From Heterotrichella gracilis (taxonomy: Eukaryota > Sar > Xanthophyceae > Tribonematales > Xanthonemataceae): 64,000 nucleotides of DNA. The stretch is from NCBI GenBank assembly GCA_032358255.1, contig JAULBX010000004.1, positions 96,340 to 160,339 on the forward strand, given 5' to 3'. How positions within the stretch are numbered: the first letter of the stretch is position 1; each line of letters begins with the position of its first letter. Below the pieces are notes generated by a model. The model ran no database searches. It had not been told where the DNA came from and saw only the letters and a program-made list of their open reading frames with translations. The position numbers were made by a program, and so were the translations under genes. Shown here in pieces: positions 15,081 to 63,868 of this stretch.

Positions 15081-17087
15081 ATGTCGCGGCTGTACATTGC
15101 AGCAGACCCCCTCGGGAAAGAGCTCAAGGATGGCATTGTGGCCTCCTTGCTGCCTGACCTGCTTCCACCTGGCACCGAGATAGTGGACCTGGGCACGTAC
15201 GACAAGTACTATGAGGCTGGGCTGGAGGTGGGGCGGCGGGTGGAGGGGTCAGCCAAGGAGGGAGGGCCCGACAGGGGCCTGCTTGTGTGTGGCACTGGCA
15301 TGGTGGGTGTGGGGACAGGGGCTGGTTGTAAATTCCGTGACAGGCAAATACTGCCATATATTGTACTGGGAATGGAACATTATGTACCAGGGTAACCCAG
15401 GACTCTGCACAGTTGCACTGGGACAGTCCACCATTCACCACCCACTCACCCACCCCCCACTTACCCCCTCACTCACCCTACCTAAGGGTGCAGTCGCTAA
15501 AACCCTAGTGCCTGCCTTGCCCTGCAGGGCATGGCCATCACCGCCAACAAGTTCCCGCACGTGTTTGCCGGGGTCGCGGAGAACGTGGCCGCCGCCCGTA
15601 ACTGCCGCGCCATCAACAACGCCAACGTGCTTGCGCTGGGGGGGCAGGTCACCAACCAGGAGCAGGCTGGGGATATCCTGCAGGCCTGGCTGGGCACGCA
15701 GTTCACATCCGGCTATGATGAATACAAGGTGGAGAGCATGCTTGAATTCATATACAATTATCATATAAAGTTTACAATTTACAATTTACAAGTCTTCATG
15801 GCAGTTTTACACCCATTACAGCTACAAGAAAATAATTTAATGCAAACACGGGCTACTAAGGACTTACAAAAAACAAGCACCATTACCATGTGGCATTATG
15901 CACAGTGGTGTGCATGGCGGATGCGCATGCTGTGAGCAGCCATTGGGTACATTGCCTTGCAATCAGCATCTGCCCCTGCAATGCACAGGGCATCATGCCA
16001 CGCACAGCTGCATCGCCACATTGTGCAGCCATACTTTTGCATGTATGTTGGCGTTCATGTTGCAGGCCAACCCCTGCATGCATCACTGTGATGCTCCCTG
16101 CAGGACTTTCTGGAGACGTCTATGCACGAGATCCCATCCATGGTTGAGCAGGCGGTGACTGCCGCTGCCACCTCCGCCACCATCTTGGGCCAGGTGGCGG
16201 GCGGCAGGACACCCATCGTGCTGGATGCCTCGGCGGTGGCTGCACAAGCGGGGACTGCGGAGGAGCCCGCTGGGGATGCGGAAACGGGTCCCAGGTTCAA
16301 GTTTGTGGATGCGGGGAGCAGCGGTCACTTTGTGCCAGTTCCTGGCCTGGGAAGTGACAAGTGCCTGTGGTGCGTGCGCTGGCCTGCATGCTGATTATAT
16401 TCACGTATCCTGCCTATGTTTACCCAGCTATTATAGGTCCAATGTCACTGCACTGGGACGTGACAAGTGCCAGTGGTGAGTGTGCTGACCAGCATGCTGG
16501 TCCATGCTGACGCTGCATCATGATCGGTTCAATATGTGCATGCATACATATGCGTTTCACATGGGCATTCCATGTGGCCATTTTGTGTGGGTCTGCAAGC
16601 AGGCCCTCTAGGGTGTCACACAAAGTGGCATGCCATTTCTGTGCCATACAAAGTAGGTGCGGTGTGCATAATTCCCTGTCAAGGGTGCACACACATGCAC
16701 GACAGCACCTAGCCAGGCGATTAATTGTCATCCAATTCACGATCCGCCCAGCAACGCTCATACCTTCACAGGTGCGTCCTCCAGGAGAACCATCCTGGCA
16801 GGGGCGTGCGGGCGGTGGTGCGATTCCCCGCCGGGGCAGTGGAGCCCGCCCACCACCACACCCATGGCCACGAGCTGCTTGTCCTCAAGGGGCACAAAAC
16901 AGTGGAGAATCACACCATGGGGAGGAAAATTGAGCTGCGCCCAGGCGGCTACCTGTACACCCCTGCACAGCACGTGCACGAGGTGAACTACCATGAAGAC
17001 ACCGAGTATTATTTTGCCTCGGACGGCTTCTTCGACATGTTTTGGGATGATGCTGGGCGCCCGGGGGTGGAGCTGCAAGGGGAGTAA
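15081..17087 (+). CDS. DRT102-like protein: RpiB/LacAB sugar isomerase domain plus C-terminal cupin
   Basis: Exons 15081-15302, 15528-15728, 16104-16369 and 16772-17087 give 334 residues. Residues 1 to about 145 form an RpiB-type fold: MSRLYIAADPLGKELK, then the active-site CGTG loop (GLLVCGTGM) followed by AITANKFPHVFAGV. After a linker of about 95 residues the last 110 residues form a cupin: FPAGAVEPAHHHTHGHELLV carries the metal-binding histidines, and TPAQHVHEVNYHEDTEYYF the second motif. This domain order is that of the plant protein DRT102, first isolated as a DNA-damage toleration clone. RpiB enzymes interconvert ribose- and ribulose-5-phosphate, but activity of the plant-type fusion is not something I can vouch for. 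Starting at 15081 gives no leader, so the protein would be cytosolic unless a 5' exon adds one. A degraded copy of the exon 3 donor region lies in intron 3 at 16451-16500. Confidence 0.9.
16451..16500 (+). repeat. Degraded copy of the exon 3/intron 3 junction
   Basis: This intronic segment repeats the end of exon 3 with its donor (about 16346-16394). Both carry GGGA(A/C)GTGACAAGTGCC, then TGTGGTGCGTG in the source and AGTGGTGAGTG in the copy, and end CATGCTG. The copy keeps a usable-looking GTGAGT donor. Confidence 0.75.
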
Positions 17088-17383
17088 GGGCATGGTAGGG
17101 ATACCAAAACAGGGCTTGAAGAGGACGTGCAGGAGAATGGGCGCATGAGAAAGGCGTGGCGGTGGAGTGGAGAACCGGCATTGTTAATTGGCAGTTACTT
17201 GGCAACTCATTTGCAAGTGTGCCTGCCTGTGTTTTGCTTTGATAAACCGATATTTGACCGCTATGACTCTTTGCTAGGGCGCACAGTGTGTTTGGTGAGC
17301 TTGCCTGTATTTTGTATTCAGTTTTTTCGGTGAAGTCCAGATATTGGAAATCACCATGAATTACCATTTCGAGCTGACAGCAT

Positions 17384-17745: not shown

Positions 17746-20700
17746 ATGCCCCATAGCCCGCCCAATGCCTCCACCACAACCATCGCCACCGCCACCGCCA
17801 CTGCCACTCCCACTGCCATCGTCACCACCGCCAGTGCTGCCCCAGCCTCAGCCGCCCAAGTGGACCACCCTTCTCCCAGCCCCACCACCTCAACCACAGC
17901 AGCTATGAAAGCCACAGTTATCACCAAGGCCCCTAGCACCACCGCCACCGCCAGCGACGCCCCAAGCCCCGGCCCAAGCGCCAAGGCGGACCACCCTTCT
18001 TCCAGTCCCACCACCGCCACCATCGCCGCCACCGCCAGTGCCGCCGCCGCCATAGCCACGCAACTGGCCCACCTTTCCACCGCTGCCACCACCGCCGGTG
18101 ATTCCCCAACCCCAGCCACCCACATAGACCCCCCTCCTCCCAGGCCAACCACCTGCGGTCACCAACCCAGCCCCAGCCCCACCCCCTGCCTACCACCCCA
18201 ACCACCACCAGCAGACCACGACACCCAGGAGGCTGAAATACCCTTGGCCGAAGACCCTTGGCAGAGCTCTACGAGGACGAGGCACACCCGCTCACCCCGG
18301 AGCAAACGTACGCCCAGGTGGCCAAGATATGCGCCAGCCTGCGCAACTTGGCGGTGGTGGATGAGAGCTTTGCAGCTGTGGCGGATGAGGCCCCCGAGGC
18401 GCTGTGTGCGCCCTGGCCCAGCTGGAAGGTGAGAGCGGGGTGGAAACCCTCAATAGGGCTTTGGGCGGGGTGAAACCCTTGCTAGGGCTGTGTGCGCCAT
18501 GGCCCAGGGGGCGAGTAGGTGGAAACCCTCAGTAGGGTAAGGGCGAGGGCAAAGGTCGTCGGCAGCAAGCAGGCCTTCAGCCTAAGTCAATTGAGACCTT
18601 GCACCCTAAACCCTGGACGATACCCCCCGGACCCTAACTCGTAGAACCCTCTCCTTGCAGCTCACTCCAGCTGTTGACCTGCTCCCACCCAACCCTGGAC
18701 CCTAACCCTAAAACCCTACACTTTGAAATCCTAAGCCCTTGTGTGTGTTCTTCCCTTGCAGCCCACTCCAGCCGGCGACCTGCTCCCCAAGACCAGTCTG
18801 TGCGTGCGGGGCGTCTCTCCGGCCATGGAGCTGAGTGAAGAGGCGCTGCACACGGTGGCCCAGGCGGCGCTGAGGTTACAGCTGTTCAAGAAGGTGCGCA
18901 CACTGTTACGATCAGAATTGCCAATCAAATCATGACACTGACAAATGATGACAGTTACAATTACAATCAAGTTCAGCTGTTCAAGGTGTGTACACAGCCA
19001 CACTCAAAACTGCCAATCAATCATGACGCTGAAAATTATAATGCCAGCAACGGTTTATGATAAAGTACACTGCTACAATCACATTTCAATCAAACAAAGC
19101 ATGGAGATCGAGACAATAATATAATATATTTAGGATCCAGTACAGCTTTTCATAAAGGTGCGCACACAGCTAGAGGTGGTTAGTCGGTTAGTTACTTACA
19201 TACATTCCAGTAGTACAGCCACATACAATAAATACAGGTAGAGTAGTTAGTGCGTAGCAGATATTTGCTAACCAGTGTTGCCGCTTACTGCACTTCCAGT
19301 GTGGCAGCTGGGTGGGCGACCCTAAACCCTAAACTAGTAACCCTAATCCTTAAACCCCAGGTATCGACCACCCACAGGGCAATGAGGGGCGGCAGATGCG
19401 GCGGGCAGCCCTCAACCCTAACCCTAACCCAAAACCCTGCAATACCTAAACCCTAACTTCCGCCCACAGGATGAGGAGGGGCGGCAGATGCGGCGGGTGG
19501 TGGCCAGCAAGCTTGCATCGGGGATGTTGCCTGGCTCAGGTGCCTGCGGGGGGTGCTGCCCCATCTTACGCCAGCGGAATGGATGGCGCTACCCAGTAGC
19601 GAGATTGTGGCTGCGCTTGTGTGGTGGCTGGGGGAGCGCTCCCGTGGGAGGCCGGTGGATGGGGATGGGGCAGGGGGGTTGGCGGTCGACGGCGGTAAGT
19701 TGCGCATTCTGTGGGGGAAGTTGGAATATCCACGTTACTGTGCATGTTATGCCATTCTGCATTGTGATGTGGGTATGAAGCATGTGTTAATTAGTTTTTC
19801 GGCGTGTGTCGCATGTGTGTCCTTCGCACTGTTCAAGGTGTTGTATGCCTGCGAATGCATGCTTGCGTGTGTGGGCTATGCATGTGCAATCTGTACATCA
19901 GCCACTTGTCCTCGCCCTGCAAAACCCTGTGTAGGGTCCCCGCAGCCGCCACCATAAACCCTATTGTACCCTACCGCACCTTGAAACCCCCGCCTGTTGC
20001 CTGGTGCAGCTTTCCTCCAGGAAGCCGTGAGCTTCTTCACTTCATTTGTGGACTCCCCCCTCGCCGCGCGCGCCTGTGGTACAACGGCTGCGTGCGTGTG
20101 TTTGCACACATGTTCCTGGAGATCACCAGCCAGGAGCCCATCCCCCACCAACCGCCAAGGGGGGATAACACCCTGTCCACCCCGCACCAAGGGGACGGTG
20201 GCACCCTGGCACCTCCACAGCAACAAGAAGGGGATGAAACCCCCACCCCCCTGCAAACCAACCACCCCTTGCTGTGGGACGTCTCCTGGGTGCTTGAGGC
20301 ATGCACCAAGATCCGTGAGTGGGTATTCATCCTCGGATTGAGGCCACCATTCTGCATGCACGTGCACTTGCGCTTGTGCCGCTTCTGGCGCATGCAGTAG
20401 CGGACCATGCATGCTCCCGGGTAGCATTCATCCACACGTAACACCTACCGTACTCACCGCCACCGCGCGTTAGGATTTACATTGTCCAGGGTATCGAGAT
20501 TGTAACGATGTGGTGATGGTGGCGGCAAGCGCGTCAAAATTTTCTGCAAAGAAAGTATGTACCTCAAGCAGCACCCCTAAACCCTAAACCCTAAACCCTG
20601 CCAACCGCGCCCCTTTTCTCACCCCCTCCACACCCCCTGCCTCAGCCCTAAATCCTACACTCTAAACCCTAAACCCCTTCACATCCCCTGCCTCCAGCCC

Positions 20701-23700
20701 CGCCCCGCGGCAGCAGACATTGGTGGGTCGAGGAGCTGTACTGCAGTGAGGGTGCACAGATAGCCTTCGCCGCCAAGTGGAGGGAGGGGGTGCAGGGGGA
20801 GCACATCAAAAAAGTGGCCAGGTGGGGAGGGATCGGGCGTGGCAGGGTGCAGCCCTTGGAAATGCATTACATCTTCTGTGGGTTACCCAGTCACATTTAC
20901 TGACTACCCATCCCAAATCCCCCCCCTTCTTCCCATTACATTTGTCCCATGCAGGTGGTCCCTCCTAGGATGGGGTCATGGACCGGTCCCTACAGTGTAA
21001 TGAAGCATTGTACAGGTTCCATTTCCTTTCTACCCCCATTGCATCCCATTGCATCCCATCCCATTACATCTCATGGCCATGTCCATATATCCCATTGCAT
21101 TCCATCCCACTACATTCCACTACATCTTATTGCATCCCTTTCCGTTCCATCTCATGTCATGCCATGTCATGCCATGTCATGTCCCATGCAGGTGGCTCCT
21201 CCAGGAGGGGGTCATAAATCCATCCCCTTTACCTTTCAACCCCGTTGCATCCCAACCATTTACATTTCACCCCCATTGCGTCCCATTCCATGACATCTCA
21301 TGCTCATCTCATCATTATTTATAAATTAAAAAAATTCAAGTAAAAAAAGTATATTTATTACCATGCCATGCCATGCCATGTCGATCCCACGCAGGTGGCT
21401 CTTCCAGGAGGGGGTCATGGAGCGATGCGCGCACCTGTTGGTGGAAGATACCACCGACCACATCATCGTGTGGATGCACCTCATCACAAATCTGATCGTG
21501 CTCTTGCCAGGCAAGGCCCGACACTCCTCGCCACCTGCCCTGCTGCTGCATCATCATTTACAGGCCTGCTGTTGGCTCTACATGATCACAACCCTGCTAT
21601 TTGATCAACTTGATTGCAAGTTCAATCGATGCAAATTGCACACAAATTGCATCATGCAATCGCACACCCGCTGATCGTAACCCTGATCAAACTCTTTCCA
21701 TAAAGAAAGGGCCCGCACCCTCCTGGCCAACCACCCCCGCATGGTACCCACTCTACTGCAATTGGAGGCCCCACCGGGAGCTGTTAATACCCCCTATGAA
21801 TGCGCCCTCCTGCTTCTGAGGCATGCTGTGGATGGGGAGGTTTTGCCTGGCTGGGGGTTGGTTGGGCAGCCAGAGGTGTGGGAGTTCCTGATGCAGGTGA
21901 GAGGGCATGTGCTGGGGGTTCCAAAACTGTATGGGAATGTATAGCTATTTCAAGTCATATAACGTATGTGTGGCAGGCATGCCTGCATTCCAAGGTTGTA
22001 TATCGTGTTTCAAGTGATTGGTTGTTCGAATGCACCTCTCCTCTAGTGGAACACATACCAGTAGGGAAAGTTTGCGGTGAAAATCGGTCCTTCCTGTCGC
22101 GTTTACCGCCCACAACATCTTAGGGACCAGCGGTGCAAAAACCTTAACCCCTTGTGTACCCTCTGTGCAGAAAGGGAAGATTTCGGCGATGCACGCCCAG
22201 GTGACCACCCTAGGGGACACCACCAGGGGAGGGGATGAGCTGCTGAGGCACCAGGCGGGGCTGATTGCAGCCATCGCAGCCAGCTTTGAACGAACCGCGG
22301 ACAGGTGCGTGGTCTAAACCCTGAACCCTAAACCTTAAACCCCAACCCTAACCAGACGAGGCGCATGGCGGCCACAGCCGCCAGCTCAAAACCCAAAACC
22401 CTGCGCAACCCCACGCAGGGCCTCCCAAGCCATCCATGCCCGGCCGGGCCAGATGCCAGTCCTCAAAGAGGAGCTGATGTTATTCCAAGGCCTGGCCAGC
22501 GTCTGCATAGTCCCCATGGGGACCTGGCTCCAGACCCAGGTGTTGTTGATGATTGGGTACTCAATGGGCCAGGCGAGCCTGGTGTACAACGACGTGTGCT
22601 TTGCCGATGACGACGTGGGTGTTGCACTTGCTGCAGCCATCCAGATGTGGGAGGCGGGGCAGGTGGACAGGGGGGGGTTGGAGGTGGGTGGTGTGGGTGG
22701 TGGGGAGGAGGGGAGGGAAGGGTGTGTGTATGTTCCAGCTTGGTAAGGACAGGGGGCAACTGAGGAGCGCCCGCATGGGGGTTTGGCAGTCTCGCTGGCG
22801 GGTGGGGCGGTGGGGTGTGGGTGGTGGGCATGTGCTGCTGTGGTCACAGGTTGGACATGGAGGCGTGTGTGACAATTGCTAATGTCGCATCGCTGGAAGC
22901 GATGAACTATCCTCAATGTTAACATTGCAGCCCGCTGCCATGGGGGGTGTAGGAGGATACTCACTTGCTCTTCTACATACCCTTGCCGTTGCTCTTTGGG
23001 TCCACATGGCAATGGCCAACCCCCCCCCCCTCCCCTTCCCCTCTGCAGCAGAGTGTGTTTGCTCTTCTGGGCAAGGTATGGCAGGGCTTGTCACTGGAGC
23101 GACTGCGGCCTAAGCAAAACCCTAACCAAGACCCTAACCACCACCCGGACACCGACACGCACCAGTCAGTGGATGTGCCCTGGCAGGTGATGGGGCAGGT
23201 GGCCTCCACCATCCAGGCATCCTTCCACTGCCACATGGCGGGCCACGACTGCGCCACCAGCTGCCTGTTCAAGCACTCGCCAAGGCCATGTCTCAAGGTG
23301 GGTGCGCAGGTACTTTATAGTATTTTCTGGGTATTTTATGGTCGTCTCTGGGTACGTTTTTTGTCTTTTCTGGGTGTCCTGGGAAGTTTCCTGGGTACGT
23401 TGTACGTTGTTCAAGCACTCACCCATGCCATGCCTCAAGGTGGGTGTGCAGGACTTTCTGGGTACAGTACTATACAGGGTCTTGTGGGTACTTCACAGTA
23501 CTATACAGGGTCTTGTGGGTACTTCACACTGCTGTCTACCTTTGTCCCTGCTTATCCCCAGTTGCATGAAAACCCACATCCTGAGGCAGACTTTGCAAAT
23601 CATTTTTTTGGTATTTGAGCACTCCCCCAACCCCCTTCCTTCCCCCTCCCCAGGCCCACGCCCTCCCCTTTGCGCGCATGCTGTACCGCTGCGGCATGTA

Positions 23701-26382
23701 CCCTGCACTGGCCCACCTGCTGGGTATGCCCTACCGCCAGGGGCAGTGCCAGGTGGCGGCGTGCCTGGCTCGCATGATGGATGTGGCAAGTGAGTGCCAG
23801 CTGGCAGCCAGGCTGTACCACGACACAGATGTGGTGGCGCAGGTGTACAGGTGGGGTGTAGACTCTAGGGTTCCTTTTAGGGTTTGGGCCTTTGAGTGCC
23901 AGCTGGCAGCCAGGCTTACCACGACAGGGATGTGGTGGCGCAGGTGTACAGGTGGGGTTTGAGGGTTCAGGGTTCAGGTTAGGGTTTGGTGCAGGTGCGC
24001 AGGTGCTGCTGATTGGGAATACATGAGTACTTGGAATTCCATGCGTTCCAGCAGTACAGCCAGTGGATGCAAATGTGTCAATAGCTAGTGAACAGGATGC
24101 CTAGCAGTATGCGTTCCTGTAGTCCAGGCGGATCAGTAACAGCCCCTTGCACATGTCAAACCTTCCAAATCTGTCTCGGCACTGTTTCTTACGAGTATTA
24201 ACTCCCTACTCACCCCCGCACCCCCACCCCCCACCCAGGCACCTCCTGTTGAACCCCACCCAGTGGAGCTGTGAGAAAGCGGCACTGTGGAGCAGCTTGG
24301 AGGGGCTGTGTCGCAGCGTGGTGGTCACAGGTGGGGGGGAGGATCGTGTGGTGGTGACTGATGGGGGGTGGGATGTGGTGCGTGATCCCGTGGCGCCATG
24401 GAGCATGTGGGGTGGGGGATGCAACATTCTTCATGCCATCAGCATATTAGGTCCACCCCTCCCAGCCCGCTTGACCGCGATTCTTGAACCCTTGGCTAGG
24501 GTTGCCATGACACCCGCCAACCCTTGATTAGGGTTGTCCTGGCACCCGCCAACCCTTGGCTAGGGTTGCCCCGCGCCCTGAAGCTAGGGTTCCCCTTCCC
24601 AATGCAGGCAAGCACCGTGCCTCCCGCGCTGCCAGGTGGCGCCTGCGCACACTGGTGGATGACAGCCTGGGGCCAGGGGAGGTCAGGCTGGACAGGACAC
24701 AGGGGGTGGTGCGGGTGGGCCAAGACCTGGAGCCAATGGTGGGTTGGTGGGTGGTGGGTGGTGGGTGGTGTGGGAAGTCCTTATGGAGGTGAATTTCGTT
24801 TCTGATTTTTGTGCTGTTTTCTTATTATGTAACCCCGTCGTAATCCTGGTTCTCATTGTAGTTCTGAACATCAAGTTGTGTCATCACCCTGATTTCATTC
24901 TTGATTGGGCCAAAGCTTCTGAATCCTGTGCCTGGTATCTTGATCAAATTGGCGCCCGGCCCCATGGTCGTTGACAGACCAGCTGCGAGTCCAACCCTAA
25001 ACCCTAATCACAATCCACGACTGTGCCTCCCCCCACAGGCGCAGGTCCTGCACTGCCTGCTGCCGTGCCTGGCTCACAAGGCCAAACCCTAACCCCAAAC
25101 CCTAAACCCTACACTCAATCTGTTGCCCCCCGCAGGCCCACGTCCTGCACTGCTTGCTGCCGCGCCTGGCCCACAAGGCCAAGGGGTTGGAATGTATGAC
25201 CGACAGAGGGGAGTACATGGCACTCACCCAGGCGCAGCTTCAGCTTGAGGGCCTGACATCGATGCAGGCAGGCACCCTCATTGCACTGCCAACCACGTGC
25301 GTCGTGTGCGTGGGGTACAACTCTGTCCCCCCTGATATGCTCCCCCTGGTGCTCTAGCTGGAGGAGATGGCTGCAAGGGATGTGGCGGGCAGCAAGGGGA
25401 AGGTGGGCGCAGCAACCTAAAACCTAAACCCTAGACCTCAAACCACACTGTCCTACAGCCGTAAATCCTCTCTTTGTTCTGCAGTTGAAGCAGGAGGCTC
25501 CCCATGGTCCCTGGCAACATATTAATCAACAGCACAATCATATGCCCTAGTTGCTAGACCCTAAACCCTCCCCCATTGTGCAGTTGAAGCAGGAGTGGCT
25601 CCCCCTGGTCCCCGACAACATCTCTTTCCTCCTCTTCCGCCCCCTTGCCGAGGACAACCCACGCGCCAACCCAGGGGTGCTATTATACAAGAACCACGCC
25701 AGCAAGGGCGCAGATGCGGGCAAAGTTTCGGAAAAGGCCAATGCAAAGCTTGCTGCCATGCGCTCGGATGGGTTCTTCTCGTATATGTATGTGTGTGGGT
25801 TTGTGCCCGCGCTGGTGTGTGTGGTGGAGGATGGCACGGAGTTGGTGGCGTATGCGTTCACTGAGCAAATTGGCGGCCTGGGCCCCTCGCCAGAGGTCAG
25901 CCAGCAAGGTGAGAGTTTAGGATTTAGGGTTTTGGGTTGTGAAGGGTGCTGCCATGTGAAAAGGCTGCTCTGTGTGCCCTGGACAAGCCTCGGCTTAAAG
26001 CAAATAGAAGGTACCTTTACGTTGTGAGTCTGTGGGCTCGAGTTGTCAACCATTTGTGGTAGTCAGATTTTGTGAATACCGTATGCTTTACCTGTTGTGT
26101 AGGAGACCATGGAGCGACAGGGGGTGCGCTAAATCCCACCCAGGAGGAGGACGCCGCAATGGCGAGGCCAATCCAGGCTCCAGCAAATCGGCTGCCAAGG
26201 AGTGCCGCATGTGTGGGGTCAGGCCCAGGGAGATGCCCCAGGGGAGCAAGCTGATGGGGTGCAGCGGGTGCGGGGGGGTGCGCTACTGCGGCAGGCTGTG
26301 CCAGCAGGCGCACTGGAAGGAGCACAAGGGGGAGTGCAGGGAGTTGCGGGCAAGGGCGAGGCGTGGGGCAGGGCCTGCCTAG
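17746..26382 (+). CDS. Long MYND zinc-finger protein, about 17 exons, frame broken in several places
   Basis: Proposed exons: 17746-18428, 18762-18893, 19470-19694, 20010-20314, 20698-20821, 21395-21510, 21706-21896, 22171-22304, 22419-22662, 23049-23075, 23187-23297, 23654-23850, 24239-24330, 24608-24738, 25136-25402, 25584-25908, 26103-26382. About 1195 residues result. The first 165 residues are Ala/Ser/Thr/Pro-rich. The middle is mostly helical and unrecognised (for example ARMLYRCGMYPALAHLLGM). The C-terminus is a MYND finger: CRMCG, CSGCGGVRYC, CQQAHWKEHKGEC. MYND domains bind proline-rich peptides; long algal proteins with a terminal MYND finger are common and mostly uncharacterised. 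Each of exons 1, 3, 4 and 17 needs one extra base to keep frame, and exon 15 has an in-frame TAG. Introns are packed with copies of exon edges. The finger is certain; the full exon chain is moderately sure. Confidence 0.72.
18488..18540 (+). repeat. Copy of the MYND-gene exon 1 end and donor region
   Basis: The stretch GCTGTGTGCGCC.TGGCCCAG and the following GTGGAAACCCTCA.TAGGG occur at the exon 1 boundary (about 18402-18455) and again here in intron 1. The copy sits between telomere-like fragments. Confidence 0.75.
18655..18690 (+). repeat. Copy of the MYND-gene exon 2 acceptor edge
   Basis: CTTGCAGCTCACTCCAGC followed by TGTTGACCTGCTCCC repeats, with four or five changes, the true exon 2 start at 18756-18788. 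Telomere-like CCCTAACCCTAAAACCCT lies between the two. Confidence 0.8.
18970..19170 (+). repeat. Two further copies of the MYND-gene exon 2 donor edge
   Basis: The exon 2 end CAGCTGTTCAAGAAG|GTGCGCACAC (18879-18903) recurs at about 18975-18997 (CAGCTGTTCAAG|GTGTGTACACAG) and at about 19143-19169 (CAGCTTTTCATAAAG|GTGCGCACACAG). All keep a GT donor. The intervening DNA is AT-richer than the rest of the gene. Confidence 0.75.
19374..19408 (+). repeat. Copy of the MYND-gene exon 3 acceptor edge
   Basis: CCCACAGGGCAATGAGG followed by GGCGGCAGATGCGGCGGG repeats the true exon 3 start at 19464-19498. Between them are CCCTAACCCTAACCC and TAAACCCTAAC telomere-like units. Confidence 0.8.
20574..20600 (+). 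repeat. Telomere-like array (CCCTAAA)3
   Basis: Uninterrupted CCCTAAA units in the intron upstream of MYND-gene exon 5 (20698), with more degenerate units to 20680. It is an interstitial array, not a chromosome end, because genes continue on both sides. Confidence 0.85.
20948..21220 (+). repeat. Two decoy copies of the MYND-gene exon 6 acceptor, with CCATTGCAT simple repeats
   Basis: The true exon 6 start (21390-21422) reads GCAG|GTGGCTCTTCCAGGAG followed by GGGGTCATGG. Near-copies occur at about 20952-20983 (GCAG|GTGGTCCCTCCTAGGA...) and 21189-21216 (GCAG|GTGGCTCCTCCAGGAG...). Between the copies lie runs built on CCCATTGCAT/CCCATTACAT and CATGTCATGC units. Confidence 0.85.
23408..23452 (+). 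repeat. Copy of a MYND-gene donor edge (exon ending 23297)
   Basis: TTCAAGCACTC.CC..GCCATG.CTCAAG|GTGGGTG.GCAGG appears at the exon end (23268-23310) and again here, with only a few substitutions. Short tandem units (GGTACTTCACA...TACAGGGTCTTGTG) follow at 23470-23530. Confidence 0.85.
23893..23957 (+). repeat. Copy of a MYND-gene donor edge (exon ending 23850)
   Basis: About 64 bases repeat the exon end at 23790-23856, from GAGTGCCAGCTGGCAGCCAGG to GCGCAGGTGTACAG|GTGGGG, nearly identically apart from small deletions. TAGGGTTTGGG units sit between source and copy. Confidence 0.9.
25028..25085 (+). repeat. Copy of a MYND-gene acceptor edge (exon starting 25136)
   Basis: CCCACAGGCGCAGGTCCTGC continuing through CTGCTGCCGTGCCTGGCTCACAAGGCCAAA matches the true exon start for about 52 bases with few changes. 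It is followed directly by ACCCTAACCCCAAACCCTAAACCCT. Confidence 0.9.
25479..25520 (+). repeat. Copy of a MYND-gene acceptor edge (exon starting 25584)
   Basis: TTCTGCAGTTGAAGCAGGAG then GCTCCCCATGGTCCCTGGCAAC repeats the true start TTGTGCAG|TTGAAGCAGGAG at 25576-25618. CTAGACCCTAAACCCT lies between them. Confidence 0.88.
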
Positions 26383-26404
26383 GGGTTAGGGTTAGGGCTA
26401 GGGT

Positions 26405-28083: not shown

Positions 28084-29133
28084 ATGGCGGCCCGCCCCCT
28101 GGCCGCCGCTGAGCGCCAGGCCAAGGTGGAGGTGTATGAGCGCTTCCTGGCCACCAAGCTGGAAAAAGACCTGGCGGCAGCAGCGGAGCAGGTGGCGCGG
28201 TTGGAGCAGGAGGCGGCCAACTACTCGCAGCTGCAGGACAATGTGCGCAAGCTGCAGCAGGTGGGTGGGAGCTCCACACTGAAACCCTAGACCTTGAACG
28301 CTGCACCCTAAAGCGTGGCTGGAGCAGGAGGTGTTCACTCGCAGCTCCAGGGCAGTGTGCGCAAACTGCAGCAGGTGGGTGGCGGATCATTTCTTTCAGT
28401 GAAAACGGAGCTTGTAACGCACATTCGGGTGTGCAAATTGAAAAAAATCAAATTCAAAAAGTGCAAATTCAAGGTACTGCATAGCAATGCACCAGGGTAG
28501 AGGTATACAATATACACCAGGTCGAGTTGCGGGTGATGTCTATGCTGGATTACAGTCTACTTATAGACCCTTGCCCATCGCCTGGCACCTTCTCTCCTTG
28601 CAGGTCAATGCCACCGAGCTGCGCCTGATGCACCCCATGGGACCCGACATCATGTGCCCCGCCCACGTGCCGGATGCGCGGCGCCTGCACGTGCATGTGG
28701 GGCTGGGCTTCCATGTGGAGTGCGGCTGGGACGAGGCCATACAGGTGGGTAGGCTGGTAGGGACTTTGAGTCTTGCTGTGGAAATCATGTTGTTCCTTAG
28801 CTGCAATTGGGTGCGTGATGCGCTTTGCATGCCTGCGGAGGGGCACGAATTGCTCTGTCCAGGGCTTGCCGGTTGTTACCGACTTGAAAATCCTACCGCG
28901 TTCAAAAAAATATATTTACCTCGTAGTGTGCTTTAATTTGATTAAATTTTATCGTTCAAAGGGACATACGTTTTAATACACAATCCGTATATTCTGCCAT
29001 CCAGGTGGCATCCCTGCGGCAGCGCCACATGGAGCGCCAGCTGGCCAATGCGCAGCAGGTTCTTGCTAAGGTGCGCGCAAACGTGAGGCTGGTGTCGGAG
29101 GGGATCAGGGAGCTGCGCCAGGTGGCGGCGTGA
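28084..29133 (+). CDS. UXT: UXT homologue (alpha-type prefoldin family)
   Basis: Exons 28084-28260, 28604-28744 and 29005-29133 give 148 residues, close to the usual length of about 157. Residues 1-60 form the first coiled-coil helix (KVEVYERFLATKLEKDL, then LQDNVRKLQQ). The middle holds the short beta-hairpin region characteristic of alpha prefoldins (LHVHVGLGFHVECGWDEAIQ), and the last 40 residues form the second coiled-coil helix (LANAQQVLAKVRANVRLVSE). UXT is part of the R2TP/prefoldin-like (URI) co-chaperone complex, which assists assembly of RNA polymerases and other large complexes. Intron 1 contains a second, degraded copy of the exon 1 end, and DNA after the stop repeats the end of exon 3. 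The start is the first ATG of the frame, and the next residues match the family start. Confidence 0.9.
28321..28384 (+). repeat. Copy of the UXT exon 1 donor edge
   Basis: GAGCAGGAGG..., CTCGCAGCT.CAGG.CA.TGTGCGCAA.CTGCAGCAG|GTGGGTGG repeats the exon 1 end (28204-28268) over about 60 bases, including a good GTGGGT donor. AAACCCTAG lies between them. Confidence 0.88.
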
Positions 29134-29179: not shown

Positions 29180-30115
29180 CATCTTGTGACAGCTGGCGCA
29201 GCGGCTGGCGCTCCACTATGCGCCAGGTGGCGTTGTGACGGCTGGCAGCCGTTGGGATTGGCAAACTCACCATTAGTGACAGCGGGCGCGGCTGCTTGTG
29301 CTGACATGGGCTGGTACAGGCTGCAGCCTTGGCCGCCATGGTCACCATCATGCGACAGCTGGCGCAGGTGGGGAGGCTGCCAAGCACAACATCATGCAGA
29401 CCAGCTGCGGCTGGGTGTGCGGGCGCAACATGCAGCCGCACGGCCATGCAACAGCAGTGCACGCGCCCCAGGTCAGGCGGGTGGTTGCGGCGGATGCAGG
29501 CGGGTTGGGGGCAGGCGGATGCAGGCGGTCCGCAGCCGCGCCCAGCGCCCCACACCCTAGGGTGTGGTAATGCACTCATGGGCGCTCCTTGACCACACTT
29601 CCGGACAGCTGGTCATGTGTCAAGGGCAAAGGAGGTCTGTGAGATCCAGGAGCGCAAGCCCCCACCAGCCAATTTTGATCCCTGGTTAGCATTTTTATTC
29701 CAGTAGGCAACAAGCAGCGCATCGGTCAGCCGATGAAATTGCAAGCCTTGGCCGTAAGCGCACGAGTATGCAATTGACGATGCCGGCCCCGAGCTGCATG
29801 TTGACACCAGCATGCATGCTGCAACAAATGTACATTAGGCACTGTTAATGGTAGCATATACTGAGGTAGTTGGAGTGGTTAACTGGCTCCCCCTGAACTG
29901 CAGTAGAGTAGAGACTTGAGAAGATACGTGGTTTGCATATGCAGAAAGCAGCTGCTATAGTTTGATGTGTGATAAGGACTGGGCAGGGTAACATTGTAGG
30001 TGCAGTTACAGGAAGCGTTTGCCAATCTGTGCCCTGCCAGCCCTGGACGTGGTTGCAGCAGGTTGCAGTCCCCCACGGCATATGGTTCCACTCATAAAGG
30101 TTCACACTGAGTGCT
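29180..30115. repeat. Dispersed repeat, copy 1
   Basis: This segment matches 33185-34235 in the same orientation through many blocks: CATGCGACAGCTGGCGC, CAGCTGCGGCTG.GTGTGCGG, CAACAGCAGTGCACGCGCCC, CACCAGCC.ATTTTG.TCCCTGG, CATGCTGCAACAAATGTACA and GCTATAGTTTGATGTGTG. Its left part overlaps a copy of the UXT 3' end (GCGCCAGGTGGCG.TGTGACGG at about 29220). No transposase frame or target-site duplication is seen, so its class is unknown. Confidence 0.8.
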
Positions 30116-51072: not shown

Positions 51073-53458
51073 ATGGAGGCCGTGTTTCCAGAGGCTCTGA
51101 GCAGCCTGCAGGATGCCGATCCTGAGATGTATGAGCTTATCGAGAACGAAAAGGCCCGCCAGTGGTATGTCCTGCTGTCCAACGCCTATCGTGGCATGCG
51201 TGTCTCGCAGCGATGCCATGCATCGTGGCCCTCATCCTCGCCCCACGTCCCTGCAGGCTGGGTATCGAGCTAATTGCGTCGGAAAACTTCACCTCTCGGC
51301 CTGTGATGGAGGCTCTTGGCTCCTGCCTGACCAACAAGTATTCCGAGGGCCAGCCAGGTGCACGGTACTATGGTGGCAATGAGAACATCGATAAAGTGGA
51401 GCTGCTGTGCAAGAAGAGGGCCCTGGAAGCTTTCCACCTGGACCCAGAGAGCTGGGGCGTGAACGTGCAGCCCTACTCCGGCAGGTAAGGCCAGGATGCC
51501 TTGGGAACAAGATGTGCGAAGCTTTGATGTGGTCACTGAACAGCCCTAGCTGCTGCAGCTGTGTTCAAATCCTGTGCGTTTCCTTTGCAGCCCCGCCAAC
51601 TTCGCTGCGTACACAGCCATCCTGAACCCACACGACCGCATCATGGGTCTCGATCTGCCCAGCGGTGGCCATCTCACCCATGGCTATTACACTGCCAATG
51701 GCAAGAAGATCTCTGCAACCTCGATCTTCTTCGAGTCCCTGCCCTACAAGCTGGACATTGCTGTGAGTAAAGCTTGCTTTTTTCTCTGCCTATTAGACAT
51801 CCTGCTGACAGTTACTGACAGATTTGAATTCGAAGGTCAGTTTGGGATTCGATTGAGTGTTTTCCCCTCTGCAGACTGGGCTGGTGGATTACGACAAGCT
51901 TGAGGAAAAAGCTTTGGACTACAGGCCCAGGCTGATCATTTGCGGTGCCTCAGCCTACTCCAGGGACTTTGACTACCCACGCCTGCGCGCGATCGCTGAC
52001 AAGGCTGGCTCCTACCTCATGGCAGACATTGCACACATCAGCGGCCTGGTGGCTGCACAGCTGCTGTCCTCGCCCTTCGAGTACTGCGACATCGTGACCA
52101 CAACCACGCACAAGTCACTGCGTGGACCTCGCGCTGGGATGATCTTCTTCCGCAGGGTGAGTCGGGCGCCTACGTACTGCCTACTGGCAACTGTGATCCG
52201 ATCCTGGGCCATTTCAATGCGATCCAGCCGCCGCTTGTTGCTGCTTAGCAACTCATCTTCCCTTGCATTCTCAGTCATGCATGGAGGACGGGTTATATGG
52301 ATGCAATGCGTTGAGTGTGTGGGGTTGCGTTCCGCTGCCAACATGCTCACTTTCACCCCTTGTCCATGCCAGGGCCCCAAGCCTGCAGATCGCCTGGCCA
52401 AGGGTGAGCCAGAGGGCACGCTGTACGACTACGAGGACAAGGTCAACTTTGCAGTGTTCCCCTCGCTGCAAGGCGGCCCACACAACCACCAGGTGCGCTG
52501 CGATGGGGATTGCCTAAACGAGGCTTAGTTTTACCAAATGTGTGATTACCAAGTCAAACCCTGTTTGCCCTGCCAAGAATTGTAACCCTAAAAGATAACT
52601 GCTAGGACTTTCTGGTGATCTCTGGCATTGCTGCGGGCGCTCCATTCAATCCGTATAAATATTTTGATGGCGCTCAGTGCCTTGCTGGTCTCAAGCCAAG
52701 CCGCGTGTCGCAGGTTGGCGCGCTGGCTGTGGCCCTCAAGTACGCCCAGACCCCCGAGTTTGTGGCCTACCAGAAGCAGGTGATTGCCAACGCGCGTGCC
52801 CTGGCCGCCGCCCTGGTGTCTCGCGGCTGCACGCTGGTCACCGGCGGCACTGACAACCACCTCATCCTGTGGGACCTGCGGCCCGAGGGCATCACCGGGT
52901 CCAAGATGGAGAAGGCCTGCGACATGTGCCACATCACGCTCAACAAGAACGCGGTGGTGGGCGACGTGAGCGCCATGACGCCCGGCGGCGTGCGCATCGG
53001 CACCCCCGCCATGTCCTCACGCGGCCTCAAGGAGGCTGACTTTGAGGAGGTGGCTGCGTTCCTGTACGAGGTGTTGGGGGTGTGCAAGGAGGTGCAGAAG
53101 AGCCACGGCAAGATGCTCAAGGACTTCAACAGGTGAGGGCCAGGCTTGGCCGGTTACTGAGGAAACAGCATAGGGCTTTGCATAGGCCTGGAGCCAGAGT
53201 TCCATGCATGGATGGTGCCATGTATGGTGAAGCTCGAGATAGATGTGCGAAGCCGGGCGCATAACTGCCGTGCTATACTGGCAATGTGGATGAATGCTTG
53301 CATGCATTGTCACTGTGCTCACCTGCGCTTCCTGCAGGGGTCTTGATGACAACGAGCAGCTGAAGGACATCCGCCGCCGCGTGTTGGAGTTTGGCTCTCG
53401 CTATGCCATGCCTGGCTTTGACATCAGCGGCCTCAAAAACTACCTGGCAGACCACTGA
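51073..53458 (+). CDS. SHMT: Serine hydroxymethyltransferase
   Basis: Converts serine and tetrahydrofolate to glycine and 5,10-methylene-tetrahydrofolate, using pyridoxal phosphate. Exons 51073-51164, 51257-51484, 51591-51762, 51875-52156, 52373-52492, 52714-53132 and 53338-53458 give 477 residues, normal for the family. Motifs in order: [39 protein letters not shown], the substrate loop [41 protein letters not shown], the cofactor-lysine motif [30 protein letters not shown] and [16 protein letters not shown]. There is no N-terminal extension before the conserved core, so a cytosolic form is likely; algae usually also have mitochondrial and plastid forms. Introns are mostly about 90-220 bases, canonical, and free of telomere-like strings and exon-edge copies. 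Codon use is strongly G/C-ending, as for a highly expressed gene. Confidence 0.97.
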
Positions 53459-59790: not shown

Positions 59791-62700
59791 ATGGTTCCTG
59801 CCCTGGTGTTGTGCTTGGCAGTGCTTCCCTGCGGGTGGGCGCAGATGCAGACCCCCTTCATGGGCCAGGGGAACGACCCCCCTGCCAACCGCACACGAGT
59901 GTATGTGTCTGTGCTTCTCAACAGGTGTGCATGGGTGGCATGTGCGTACACCCGTGTACATAGTTGCACACCAGGGCCGTATCTGTTTGGCCTTGCCACA
60001 CACATGGCATCGGTTGTGCTGGGTAGGGAATAGCGTTGCCTGAGCGAATGCTGCCACATAGGTGTGTCAGGTCAAGCCTTGCACACCTGGTTGTGCTTCA
60101 AGCACATCCGCATATGCTATATACGCACATGCACTCGCTTTTCCCACTTAGGTGCTGTACGTGAGGGTGTACACGTGGGCTTGCCAAACCCTGGTAGGGT
60201 TTCTTATGAGGGGGTTTGTGGCCCCCCTGCAGGTTGCTAGAGGTGGATGACAACAACTACCGCTTCAAGGTACGTGCGTGAAAGTTATCTTTCATGAGGG
60301 CATTTGCTATATGGGTGCATGCAGCCATGAGGAACGAAGCTTGCATTCCATTGCTGGACCAGCCTCATCCCGGTGCCGCATCGGATCTCATTCCGGCCCT
60401 GATATACAAGCCATCAAGTTCACCACTTCCCCTCAGGTCCCCTCCGCTGGTCTTTGAAGCCCTAGAGAAACCCTTTCCCTGCACCCTAATGCAGGCGGTG
60501 ATCATCTACTACCTTGCATTAACCCTCAGATTGCTCATCCAAAACCCTAACAAAACCCCATTCCTTGTCTACTAACGCAGGCGGTGATCATCTACTACCT
60601 TGCATGGAACGACACCCGTGCCCGGCCCACCATCGACAGCAACACCCGGAAAATGGTGCAAAACACGACCAGCTCCAATGGGGGTCCAGGGTGCAGCTAC
60701 CTGTGCACCAGCAGCGGGCAGGGGGAGTGCTGTGATGGCGTGTGGCTGCCGCATGTGGACCTGGCGAATGTGTATGGCCTGTCGCAAGTAAGGGGCATAC
60801 ACATGTGTGGATGCATTTGCCAGTGTGGGGTAATGGGGCAAGATTCTGGCATGGTATGTGTGTGGATGCCAGTGCCATGTGAGATGGTTGGGCGATTGTG
60901 TAGACATGGTATACGCAGAGCCAGGACAGACTTTGCTGCAGATACACATGCCATTGGAAGTCATACTGGCGCCTGTGGTGCTACCCGTAAGTAGCGCTCC
61001 GCAGATTTCCAGCTATGCTTTTCCACTTAGGGTTTCAACTAGGGTTCTCCCTCTGTGTGCAGGACCGCATAATTCGGTACGGCATCGGCACCACCGACGG
61101 CGGGGGCGTGTTTTGGTGGGCCAGCGTGAATGGGGAGTATTATACGCAGATGAACTTCCACGCCTTCCCCTTTGACCAACAGAAGCTGATCGTGGATCTG
61201 GTGGTGTACCAAGGGGGGAATGGGTTCCCGGGAAACGGGGTAGAGCTGTGGCCAAGCACTACAAGCATCTCCACCGCCACGACCAATAACATAGGCGAGT
61301 GTGCATGCCTTATGGAGGATTAGGGACACCTTGCCATGGCTGTGCACATCTCATTATATGTATGCAGGCACCTCGCCCTTGTTTGTATGTGGATGTGAGC
61401 CACATGCCATGCACTGGGTCACACAGGATTGCCTTGCTTGCAATTTCCAGTTAAGATGATACTACCGTACCCCATGCTTGTGTGTAACAAATGCGACACC
61501 AACTGACGTAGAGTCCATTTGTTGACCATTGAAGTGTTTGCTGGCGCACGGCATATCAGAACCCCACACAAGAATTACCTCCAATATCCTAAACCCTACT
61601 GCAGGCGACGCTGTCAGTGGGTGGGGTATCCGTGAGCTCAACCTCTCCTCCTACAGCTACCCTTCTTGCTCCCCCTTCGCCCAGCCCGGGGGGTTGCCCT
61701 CCAACTCCTCAGACCCTGCCCCAATAAACCCTCTAGGGTTGGCCCCAGAGTATGAGCAGGAGTGCAGTGTGGCCATCACCACCATGCCAGGGGGGAACCA
61801 ATCGCCGTTTTACGTGGCGGGGATGGATGGCCAGGTGGGTTTGTTTCCCTCGTCTTGCGCGTAGTTGGATCAAGTGCTTGTACAGTACGATATCTTGGTA
61901 CAACACTGTGGTTGCACTGCATTAGGGTGCACTCTTTCTCTCCCAGAGTCCTTGAGGCAATGCGCAGTAGTGCAGACTACCACAAGGTATCACAATGGTT
62001 GTTTCCATAGAGGCACACAGCCACAGCAAACTACACAGTGAAGCTGTCCCATGCCACGCCAATGGCGTGTCCCCTTGTCCAAAATCACCCCACACCCTGT
62101 TTCTGCTCTCTTTATACATTTTTTATGTTGTTCATTTCATATTTTTCTTCGTTTCTGCCCCTTCAGGCCCCCAGCAGCTCCGTGACCTCTGGCGTGACAG
62201 TTGTCATCACCGTGCAGAGGTTCTACATCTACTACATCGTCAACAGCATCCTGCCAATCATGCTCACGGTGTGGATGGGCTTTGTGGTGTTCTTCATACC
62301 AAAGGCAAACCTGGAGGCGCGCATGGGTGCGTGACTGGGAGGACTTGGGATTTGGGGACTAGGGGTGGTGGATTTGGTTTTTTGGCGTTATGTGGTTTGG
62401 AATCAGAGCGGTGGTGTTGTCCATCCCCAAGGCAAAGCTGGAGGCGCGCATGGGTGATTGGCCGAGAGGGTTGTGGTGGTGTGGACAGTAGGGTTTGGGA
62501 ATTAGGGTTGTGGGGCCATGATCGGTAGGGTTTGGGAATTAGAATCGAGGGATGGGATTTGTGGTCTTCTTCATACCGTAAAGGAGGGCATGGGTGGCTC
62601 CCCAGCATCGCCTCCAACTGCAACGGATGACGGTACTTCTCAGCCATATGACAAGGCATCCCCCTCTTTCCTCCCCAGGCATCATCGTCACGCTCTTCCT

Positions 62701-63868
62701 TGCCCTCACCGCCATCCAGTTTGTGGTGGCCCAGACCCTGCCCGCCTCCTCCTACATCCTGTCCGTGCAGCAGCTCATCCTCATGTCGTACATAGTGCTG
62801 GCGCTGTGCGGGGCGGAGAGCCTGCTGGTGTACTTTGTGGTGGAGTGGAAAATCAGGTCGCAGAGGTGTGAAACCCTAGCAAAACCCTAACAAAACCCAA
62901 GGAACGTTTGTGGGGAGTGGAGCCTGCTGGTGCACTTTGTGGTGGAGTGGAAGATCAGGTCGCAGAGGTGAAACCCTAGCAAAATCCCTAACAAAACCCT
63001 GTTTGTGGTGGAGTGGAAGATCAGATTGCAGAGGTGAAACCCTAGCAAAACCCCTAACAAAACCCTCGTTGTGGTGGAGTGGGACGTGGGATTGCATCGG
63101 TGAAACCCTAGCATAGCCCTGTTTGTGATGGAGGGGATGAAAGGTCACAGGTGTAAAACCCCTTGCTCGTTAGAACCCCCACTTTGCTACTAATCAGAAC
63201 GGCAGTTTGTGGTGCATACTGCTGGCAAGCGCTGACAATGTCCCTTGCTGCGTATGAACTTTCTGGGTCCAGGGTCACGCCTGCTTCCTAATGTGTCACA
63301 ACCTGACGCGGTTCCTCACACATCACTAGGGAGGTTTTAGGGCTTCCACACACTCCGAACTTGCCCAAAAAGCCCTCTCGCCCCGCCCCTGTGCAGGATC
63401 AAGGCCCGGCACGCCGCCCTGACCCGCCTGACCCGCTCCCATGGTAGGCGCATGACCCTGGACCCAGAAACGCAGGAGTTCATACGCAGGCAGAGCATGG
63501 AGATGGCAGGTAGGAAGCGCTGTGCCGCAACCCCAATGGGCGCCTGATGGAGCGCTCATGTTACCCTAATGCAACCCTTGTACTACCCTAATGGCCGTCC
63601 ATGTCACCGCAATGGAACCCTTGTGCTACCCTAATGAGGCGCTCATGTAACCTCAATGGAACCCTCGTGGTACCCTACTGGGCCACAGGCTGTCCCTGAA
63701 GGTGGCAGTGTTAATCTACCCTTACGTACGGTTTGCCCGGCTCTGGTGCGCATTCCTCCAGGTGGCCAGGGGGTGTACAGTGATGCTGAGGGTATGGATG
63801 TGCGGCGGGTGGACACTGCCTCAAGGGATGACCTCATGTCAAGCACCATGTTTGGGCGCAGGCAGCAG
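59791..63868 (+). CDS. Pentameric ligand-gated ion channel without a Cys-loop (3' end outside the window)
   Basis: Exons 59791-59924, 60233-60269, 60581-60787, 61063-61294, 61605-61834, 62167-62326, 62679-62865, 63397-63509 and 63762-63868 give 469 residues so far, ending in phase at a donor. A signal peptide (MVPALVLCLAVLPCGWAQ) is followed by a beta-rich ligand-binding domain: LEVDDNNYRFKAVIIYYLAW with NDTRARP, and the signature FHAFPFDQQKLIVDL. The two cysteines that define eukaryotic Cys-loop receptors are absent there. M1 is RFYIYYIVNSILPIMLTVWM; M2 IIVTLFLALTAIQFVVAQ with a Glu five residues before it; M3 QLILMSYIVLALCGAESLLV. A basic cytoplasmic loop follows and M4 must lie beyond the window. 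A cysteine-rich insert (GCSYLCTSSGQGECC) sits in exon 3. The preserved Glu near the M2 start suggests cation selectivity, by analogy with bacterial GLIC. The exon 4 donor appears to be GC. Confidence 0.9.
60490..60526 (+). repeat. Copy of channel exon 3 acceptor edge
   Basis: ATGCAGGCGGTGATCATCTA CTACCTTGCAT is identical over about 30 bases to the true exon 3 start (60576-60606). Between the copies are CCAAAACCCTAACAAAACCCC strings. Confidence 0.95.
62424..62460 (+). repeat. Copy of channel exon 6 donor edge
   Basis: CCAAGGCAAAGCTGGAGGCG CGCATGGGTG repeats the exon 6 end (62299-62330, CCAAAGGCAAACCTGGAGGC GCGCATGG|GTG). Confidence 0.9.
62830..63160 (+). repeat. Tandem array built from channel exon 7 donor edge, with AAACCCTAGCAAAACCCTAAC spacers
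   Basis: The true exon 7 end (TTTGTGGTGGAGTGGAAAAT CAGGTCGCAGAG|GTG, 62834-62868) recurs at about 62936-62970, 63001-63036 and 63068-63102, with a last remnant at 63120-63150. The copies become more divergent to the right. Unit length settles at about 66 bases, of which about half is the telomere-like spacer. Confidence 0.95.

What the first reader, a model, noticed from the sequence alone, without database searches (positions are those of the whole stretch)
16300..63160. Introns filled with degraded copies of neighbouring exon edges, linked to telomere-like DNA
In five genes (RpiB-cupin, MYND, UXT, TTC13-like, ion channel) I find about two dozen cases where an intron, or DNA just past the stop codon, holds an extra copy of the adjacent exon boundary: 20-100 coding bases plus the AG acceptor or GT donor. 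In many cases source and copy are separated or flanked by CCCTAAA or TTTAGGG strings. Copies come from either side of the exon and vary from near-identical to barely visible, so the process looks repeated and continuing. Both strands of the window are affected. An inference that fits: double-strand breaks at exon edges repaired by copying local sequence, with telomerase or telomeric fragments adding CCCTAAA. Tandem duplication of segments carrying AGGT is also a classic proposed route to new introns, so these may be failed or successful intron births. I know of no described system that couples the two.
Basis: partly seen in the sequence, partly recalled or inferred. Interest (0 to 1): 0.88.

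Follow-up and report, generated by a model that had tools for sequence, protein, structure and literature searches.

The report
Exon-edge duplications with telomere-like filler
Across this alga-like nuclear genome, many introns have been lengthened by extra, decaying copies of the neighbouring exon edge, often with telomere-like DNA lodged between the copies, which looks like a scar of repeated DNA-break repair rather than the birth of new introns.

Summary
In 294 kb (window plus 23 other 10-kb stretches) I found 103 separate local direct-repeat pairs, most often with period 80-120 bp, 68-97% identical; 81 hold a predicted exon edge (random mean 35, maximum 53 in 300 placements). Inverted pairs at the same score: 2, against 109 direct. 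Telomere hexamers reach 45/kb in spacers, 12/kb in introns without pairs. Telomere arrays are flanked by direct repeats in 17 of 67 cases, against 118 of 3000 random positions. Telomere units lie between the copies more often than beyond them (22 against 6 at equal length).

The intron-birth reading fails: in 44 of 44 measurable cases the inner copy sits inside an otherwise ordinary intron, and tandem-duplication junctions are essentially absent (1 weak of 125). Inner copies decay as non-coding DNA. Introns are not a mobile family.

Best reading: staggered breaks repaired by fill-in and end joining, making small tandem duplications with telomeric filler; selection keeps those whose extra DNA falls outside coding sequence. 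Each half is known; the combination was not found in my searches. Telomerase action is not shown.

The parts
15063..17083 (+). RpiB-cupin gene (predicted exons); donor-edge pair 16347-16393 / 16453-16499, 87% identical
   Evidence: (PF02502, PF12973)
18401..18537 (+). donor-edge pair 18401-18458 / 18487-18537
18653..18787 (+). acceptor-edge pair with spacer holding CCCTAACCCTAAA
18879..19039 (+). donor-edge pair 18879-18949 / 18974-19039
19319..19497 (+). acceptor-edge pair; each copy begins with CCCTAA units
23266..23457 (+). donor-edge pair, spacer 91 bp without clear telomere units
23791..23989 (+). tandem donor-edge pair ending in TTAGGG-like units, period 102
24993..25182 (+). tandem acceptor-edge pair, each copy beginning AACCCTAAACCCTA, joint accctaacccca
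25477..25621 (+). MYND gene: acceptor-edge pair, spacer with CCCTAAACCCT near its end
   Evidence: PF01753
26329..26509 (+). MYND gene: tandem donor-edge pair with TTAGGG units, period 92
28195..28382 (+). prefoldin/UXT-like gene: donor-edge pair, spacer ends CCCTAAA
   Evidence: PF02996
35633..35908 (-). TPR gene: most alike pair of the window (94% identical), donor edge, spacer 120 bp
37149..37376 (-). TPR gene: acceptor-edge pair, spacer with TTTAGGG units
37488..37718 (-). TPR gene: donor-edge pair, 88% identical
38853..39086 (-). TPR gene: acceptor-edge pair with TTAGGG units inside both copies
40193..40342 (-). TPR gene: donor-edge pair, spacer with attagggtttagggtt
40448..40641 (-). TPR gene: overlapping tandem acceptor-edge copies, period 80
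41089..41225 (-). TPR gene: acceptor-edge pair, spacer with TTAGGG units
41763..41915 (-). TPR gene: donor-edge pair, spacer ending in CCCTAA
42413..42601 (-). TPR gene: pair at the edge of predicted exon 42534-42720; the gene finder calls a donor (GTAAGTT) here, but the same bases can be read as a TAA stop; spacer with agggtttaggg twice
44227..44394 (-). TPR gene: tandem acceptor-edge pair, each copy ending AGGGTTTAGGGT (+ strand)
60468..60605 (+). channel gene: acceptor-edge pair with CCCTAA units
   Evidence: PF02931, PF02932
62284..62469 (+). channel gene: donor-edge pair, spacer 68 bp
62807..63119 (+). channel gene: about three donor-edge copies, each followed by AAACCCTAGCAAAA-type units
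51073..53458 (+). SHMT gene, six introns, no pair: a gene without the feature; its exons, read by hand, also seeded the gene finder

Best explanation
These are scars of small, local break repair. A staggered double-strand break near a coding edge is filled in on both ends and rejoined, so the stretch between the two nicks (mostly 30-110 bp) is present twice. In about half of the spaced cases telomere-like sequence sits between the copies, which suggests that telomeric units were added to, or captured by, the open end before joining. If the extra copy and filler land outside coding sequence the event survives: the copy that keeps the exon and its splice site stays intact, and the inner copy decays freely. 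Repeats of the event lengthen introns by about 100 bp at a time and leave telomere-like DNA within about 60 bp of exon edges. Shown: the pairs, their positions, decay, telomere link and placement in ordinary introns. Inferred: staggered breaks, fill-in, end joining and the source of the telomeric units.
For: 103 direct pairs in 294 kb, 81 holding an exon edge against a random mean of 35; the result holds separately in the window (26 of 30) and the other loci (55 of 73, random mean 25.6). Direct to inverted 109 to 2 without complexity filter. Donor edges mostly in the gene-upstream copy (45 of 55 edges) and acceptor edges in the downstream copy (35 of 41), as needed if the filler must stay in the intron (counted). 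Mismatches at codon positions 118:103:207 and frame-shifting gaps in 41 of 74 edge pairs: one copy decays freely while the exon keeps mainly silent changes. Spacer telomere hexamers 266 against 19-69 for 19 matched controls. At equal length, telomere units next to the outer copy only 22, beyond the inner copy only 6, both 8, neither 20, of 56 (p 0.004); density 73.7 against 27.7 per kb. In 45 of 54 pairs the spacer does not match the sequence beyond the inner copy (p at least 0.05), so most filler is real. Telomere arrays flanked by direct repeats 17 of 67 against 118 of 3000. Precedent: direct duplication at a few horse telomeric insertions, attributed to staggered breaks (PMC7215372, passages); small tandem duplications from fill-in of 3' overhangs by CST-Pol alpha-primase, the telomere fill-in machinery (PMC8355091, passages). 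A telomerase RNA-binding domain is encoded (PF12009).
Against: No empty site in a relative could be compared. 34 of 75 spacers of 20 bp or more hold no telomere hexamer, and the matched controls hit 11-29 of the 75, so part of the 41 are chance. 33 of 103 pairs hold none at all, and 493 of 967 random exon-edge spans hold one, against 70 of 103 pairs. Among pairs at least 88% identical, 6 of 20 spacers do match the flank beyond the inner copy: these are plain tandem units. Orientation within spacers does not show telomerase priming, nor do G/C tracts at splice sites. The flanked arrays are not independent: several of the top ones lie in one locus, L018. Breaks at random do not explain why only 3 pairs lie off genes (33 expected). 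The Stn1 search found nothing, but rang in no control either and says nothing about absence.
Confidence: 0.6

Rival explanations
1. Telomere-like runs came first (as splicing signals near exon edges or as older insertions) and are fragile; replication stalls there and the polymerase slips back about 100 bp into the exon, so duplications are a consequence.
For: Some arrays repeat the unit exon edge plus telomere run (L014, L025, L033); 13 of 56 spaced edge pairs have telomere units inside both copies. Telomere runs lie near exon edges even in introns without pairs (20.2 per kb at edges, 7.1 in the middle). Sense CCCTAA near acceptors, and CTAAC 23 near acceptors against 4 near donors, fit a splicing use, although CCCTAAC against CCCTAAA does not differ clearly between the two zones (p 0.08).
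Against: In spaced pairs the telomere run is more often between the copies only (22) than beyond the inner copy only (6), so it was mostly not copied with the exon edge. 33 of 103 pairs hold no telomere hexamer.
Confidence: 0.25
2. Intron birth by tandem duplication of a segment with AGGT.
For: The copies carry splice sites and the idea predicts direct repeats.
Against: 1 weak case in 125 tested junctions; 44 of 44 inner copies lie 96-430 nt from the far splice site.
Confidence: 0.03
3. A mobile intron family (introner) with long target-site duplications.
For: Direct repeats flank an insert near genes.
Against: Among 293 introns only 6 pairs of introns are similar at E 1e-6, 4 of them between loci; copies here are 30-190 bp, whereas introner target-site duplications are given as 3-9 bp (PMC9860276, passages).
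Confidence: 0.03
4. Ordinary replication slippage making minisatellites, with no break and no link to telomeres; the exon-edge pattern comes only from selection and from slower decay of exon copies.
For: Some arrays have three or more copies. A pair with one exon copy should diverge about 1.5-2 times more slowly than a wholly non-coding pair (my estimate).
Against: Spacers of 20 bp or more in 75 of 103 pairs, mostly unlike the flank beyond the copy; telomere density in spacers; the shortage off genes (3 against 33) looks larger than slower decay alone gives.
Confidence: 0.09

Closest known systems
Short interstitial telomeric sequences inserted during double-strand break repair (primates, rodents, horse; PMC7215372, passages read)
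   Same: Telomere units inside chromosomes; direct duplication of the target at some loci, attributed to staggered breaks.
   Different: There duplication is rare (3 of 66 horse loci alone, 2 more with other changes) and the share of human insertions in introns fits random insertion; here pairs crowd at exon edges, about 350 per Mb of sample.
Small tandem duplications by fill-in at staggered breaks (PMC8355091, passages read; patch-mediated repair in rice is cited there and not held)
   Same: Local, direct, tens of bp, made from opposed nicks; uses the telomere fill-in complex CST with Pol alpha-primase.
   Different: No telomeric filler described in the passages I read, and no focus on exon edges.
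Staggered breaks in new introns of Daphnia (PMC4202315, abstract and passages)
   Same: Direct repeats shared by intron and exon edge; authors propose that repeated staggered breaks lengthen introns.
   Different: Repeats of 4-12 bp shared with exons, newly gained introns, the word telomere does not occur; here mostly 30-110 bp in introns of ordinary length.
Telo boxes of plants (PMC3022908, passages)
   Same: Telomere units in genes; authors propose telomerase acting on free 3' ends.
   Different: There most frequent in 5' untranslated regions; no linked duplication in the passages read.
Introners (PMC9860276, passages)
   Same: Affect introns on a genome scale.
   Different: Introners are families of similar introns; here sampled introns are unrelated to one another apart from 6 pairs.

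Membership tests
Interstitial telomeric sequences from break repair | Telomere units inside chromosomes beyond chance | tested here: met
   1822 against 173-470 for matched necklaces in 294 kb; 834 exact 21-mer matches genome-wide, reversed control 0
Interstitial telomeric sequences from break repair | Inserted in one step at an otherwise intact site (empty site in a relative) | not testable with these tools
   G000 has no relatives in the collection
Interstitial telomeric sequences from break repair | Orientation expected of telomerase priming, or joint bases in register with the unit | tested here: inconclusive
   24 of 41 spacers in the expected direction; register not tested
Small tandem duplication by fill-in end joining | Local direct repeats of tens of bp, adjacent or nearly so | tested here: met
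   28 pairs with spacer under 20 bp, 75 with 20 or more; copy length quartiles 52, 75, 100 bp; direct to inverted 109 to 2
Small tandem duplication by fill-in end joining | Dependence on Ku, CST, Pol alpha-primase | not testable with these tools
   Needs mutants; Stn1 profile search uninformative
Intron gain by tandem genomic duplication | Donor in copy 1 and acceptor at the same place in copy 2 | tested here: not met
   1 weak of 125; 44 of 44 against
Introners | Families of mutually similar introns | tested here: not met
   4 cross-locus pairs among 293 introns, one of them a 24-base match
Introners | Short target-site duplication (3-9 bp) or terminal inverted repeats, in those families that have them | tested here: inconclusive
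   Copies 30-190 bp; 2 inverted local pairs. Repeats of 3-9 bp were not searched for
Mutually exclusive (alternative) exons | Both copies keep an open frame under coding constraint | tested here: not met
   Frame-shifting gaps in 41 of 74 edge pairs and near-equal changes at codon positions 1 and 2; single cases such as 35633/35831 and L025 8137 could be exceptions, and the 18 pairs with both copies on predicted exons were not tested

The most novel reading that the evidence does not exclude
In this green lineage a telomere-end reaction (telomerase extension plus CST/Pol alpha-primase fill-in) acts recurrently on breaks at coding edges, producing copy-telomere-copy scars, and is a standing mutational engine that lengthens introns about 100 bp at a time and seeds them with CCCTAA branch-site-like and TTAGGG elements. 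It would help explain why introns of related green algae are unusually long.
Probability: 0.3. Interest if true: 0.87.

Novelty: new variant of a known kind. Interest (0 to 1): 0.72.

Why it matters
Why introns are as long as they are in compact algal genomes is open: a comparison of Chlamydomonas relatives reports long introns with an atypical length distribution and says that whatever drives it is likely ancient (PMC8226300, passages). Here a process that adds roughly 100 bp at exon edges can be read directly from sequence, dated by copy divergence, and tested between strains. It also ties together two processes usually studied apart, small tandem duplication at breaks and telomeric insertion, and shows where purifying selection lets such scars persist.

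Tried and rejected
Telomerase targeting by G-rich donors or C-rich acceptors: no difference between edges with and without copies (22 of 40 against 117 of 253 donors; 18 of 31 against 148 of 262 acceptors). Direction of telomere units in spacers as a sign of priming: no clear signal. Intron birth by tandem duplication: rejected. Introner family: rejected. Alternative coding exons: rejected as the general case. Assembly artefact: copies differ by 3-32% with many frame shifts, which doubled reads would not give; no reads were available, so this is inference. The first gene-finder setting collapsed into tiny exons and was discarded; the second was kept. My first count of telomere units between and beyond the copies (24 against 3) compared whole spacers with shorter flanks; the equal-length count is 22 against 6 and is the one used. 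Naming the organism: the ribosomal RNA family search failed twice, a pattern search found nothing, a 70-base query found the start of an 18S gene, of which the locus holds 72 bases. Green lineage rests on the SHMT match (best chain SHMT 4; that this is the Arabidopsis enzyme is recalled) and TTTAGGG units; no tree was made. Stn1 search uninformative. Paper searches for the coupling; no listed title or start of abstract described it; only open-licence papers were searched.
Full report
What was checked. The window is G000:C3:96340-160339 of a 68.5 Mb, 903-contig assembly. I compared the window with itself, printed 25 pairs, then fetched 25 stretches of 10 kb from other contigs. One (L013) read wholly N and one (L009, contig C1) is AT-rich (GC 0.36) and belongs to a contig with an open FtsZ/tubulin-family frame of 534 aa, so probably bacterial; both were left out, except that L009 served as a control and had no local direct repeat. 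The working sample is the window plus 23 stretches, 294 kb. The stretches were chosen by me from the low-numbered contigs, not at random.

Gene models. No annotation or relatives were available. I trained a simple hidden Markov gene finder on this DNA; the first setting failed; the second gave six of the seven hand-read SHMT exons exactly and most of the first, but SHMT was part of the seed, so this is no independent test. Bases called: 116,072 intergenic, 76,945 exon, 100,983 intron; GC 0.516, 0.637, 0.525. Six predicted window proteins match Pfam: S9 peptidase, RpiB-cupin, MYND, prefoldin, ligand-gated channel, TPR. Exon edges are therefore usable but not RNA-proven; gene starts and ends are weak and some genes are merged.

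The copies. After removing overlaps and low-complexity sequence there are 103 direct pairs (350 per Mb): 74 have one copy on an exon and the other off, 18 have both on exons, 8 lie in introns only, 3 in neither (random placement: 33, 18, 19, 33). Dropping the complexity filter gives 76, 21, 9, 3 and 2 inverted pairs; a lower score cut gives 80, 21, 11, 4 and 3 inverted. Periods cluster at 80-119 bp (46 of 103) with a second group at 160-219 bp (26 of 103); identity 68-97%, median 84.6. Copies are 30-190 bp, 82 of 103 between 30 and 110. Pairs per 10 kb are uneven (0 to 11, variance/mean 3.1), and in the window two whole genes have none.

Where the copies end. For pairs at least 88% identical with spacer of 20 or more, the copy reaches a median of 42 bp into the exon and 11 bp into the intron; with the splice site placed at random in the copy the intronic median would be 22 (20 pairs); without the spacer filter 16 against 25 (25 pairs). 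So copies are mostly exon edge plus the splice signal. GC-rich coding DNA may break or refill more often; that is not tested.

How the copies age. In 74 edge pairs mismatches fall 118, 103, 207 on codon positions 1, 2, 3, and 41 pairs have frame-shifting gaps, 32 no gap, 1 only in-frame gaps. This is what free decay of the inner copy plus silent change in the exon gives. The spread of identity argues for a continuing process.

They are not intron births. In 44 cases the inner copy lies wholly inside one predicted intron; the far splice site is 96-430 nt away, so the intron without the insert has an ordinary length. Introns with pairs have a median of 383 nt, those without 287.5, a difference of about one period. 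A direct test for the tandem-duplication type of birth found one weak candidate in 125.

The telomere link. Telomere 7-mers: introns 10.7 per kb, intergenic 5.8, exons 0.94; in introns 756 sense CCCTAAA against 325 sense TTTAGGG. Hexamers: spacers 45.1 per kb, copies 36.7, introns with pairs 30.6, introns without 12.3, intergenic 9.8. In the zones next to exon edges: 46.2 with pairs, 20.2 without. Exact arrays of 13 bp or more flanked by direct repeats: intergenic 9 of 30 against 26 of 1500 random positions, intron 8 of 37 against 92 of 1500 (p 6e-9 and 0.002, if arrays are taken as independent, which several in L018 are not). Telomere density next to the outer copy in the spacer 73.7 per kb, in the equal-length flank beyond the inner copy 27.7; present in spacer only 22, both 8, flank only 6, neither 20, of 56. 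Against a strong reading: 33 of 103 pairs have no telomere hexamer; one hexamer occurs in 493 of 967 random exon-edge spans of the same lengths; and matched control hexamers hit 11-29 of the 75 spacers where the telomere set hits 41.

Genome-wide patterns. CCCTAAACCC lies 5-30 nt before CCNCAGG 704 times, GGGTTTAGGG 196 times; reversed controls 2 and 3. After CAGGTGNG at 3-30 nt, CCCTAAACCC 448 and GGGTTTAGGG 718; controls 0 and 2. So both kinds of splice edge carry telomere motifs, with the G-rich strand pointing away from the exon more often than not. Selection on splicing can explain much of the acceptor bias: TTTAG would offer a false acceptor and CTAAC is branch-site-like (CTAAC 23 near acceptors, 4 near donors). 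The places listed (only the first places of each are shown) include neighbours about 70-180 bp apart, such as C23:72994, 73106, 73218.

Mechanism. The best fit is fill-in of staggered ends followed by end joining, with telomeric sequence at the joint. Precedents read in passages: staggered-break duplications at a few horse telomeric insertions (PMC7215372), small tandem duplications made by CST with Pol alpha-primase at 3' overhangs (PMC8355091), staggered breaks lengthening young Daphnia introns (PMC4202315), telomerase proposed to seed telo boxes (PMC3022908). A telomerase RNA-binding domain is encoded in this genome. Whether telomerase acts is not shown: orientation in spacers is 24 of 41 and G/C tracts do not mark the affected edges. 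The main rival is that telomere runs near exon edges are fragile and come first; repeated exon-plus-telomere units and the 6 of 20 young pairs whose spacer matches the flank beyond the copy favour it, the spacer-only placement favours the joint model.

Standing. The parts are known; the combination, its density and its place at coding edges were not found in ten searches of open-licence papers. I file it as a new variant of a known kind.

Noticed in passing
G000 contig C1 (894,458 bases; L009, L034): AT-rich contig (GC 0.36 in the first 10 kb) with an open FtsZ/tubulin-family frame of 534 aa: probably a bacterial genome (symbiont or contaminant) in the assembly.
   Followed up: partly
window 667-10105 and 51073-53458: Two intron-rich genes (S9 peptidase, SHMT) have no pair, while other genes of the window have many; the load differs strongly by gene.
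   Followed up: partly
window 35633-35908; L025 8137-8531; L014 7852-8135: Copies that keep long open frames and flanking splice-like sites; these few could be spliced as extra or alternative exons.
   Followed up: no
window 29332-30042 and 33197-34164: A longer dispersed repeat about 4 kb apart (74-84% identical), with inverted pieces, unlike the exon-edge pairs.
   Followed up: no
L021 77-307: The spacer holds a further partial copy of the same exon edge, which looks like a template jump inside the filler.
   Followed up: no
L018 3094-3903, L018 5539-5919, L033 5385-5825: Arrays of several head-to-tail units of exon edge plus telomere-like run.
   Followed up: partly
window 6391-6463, minus strand: A tRNA gene.
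   Followed up: no
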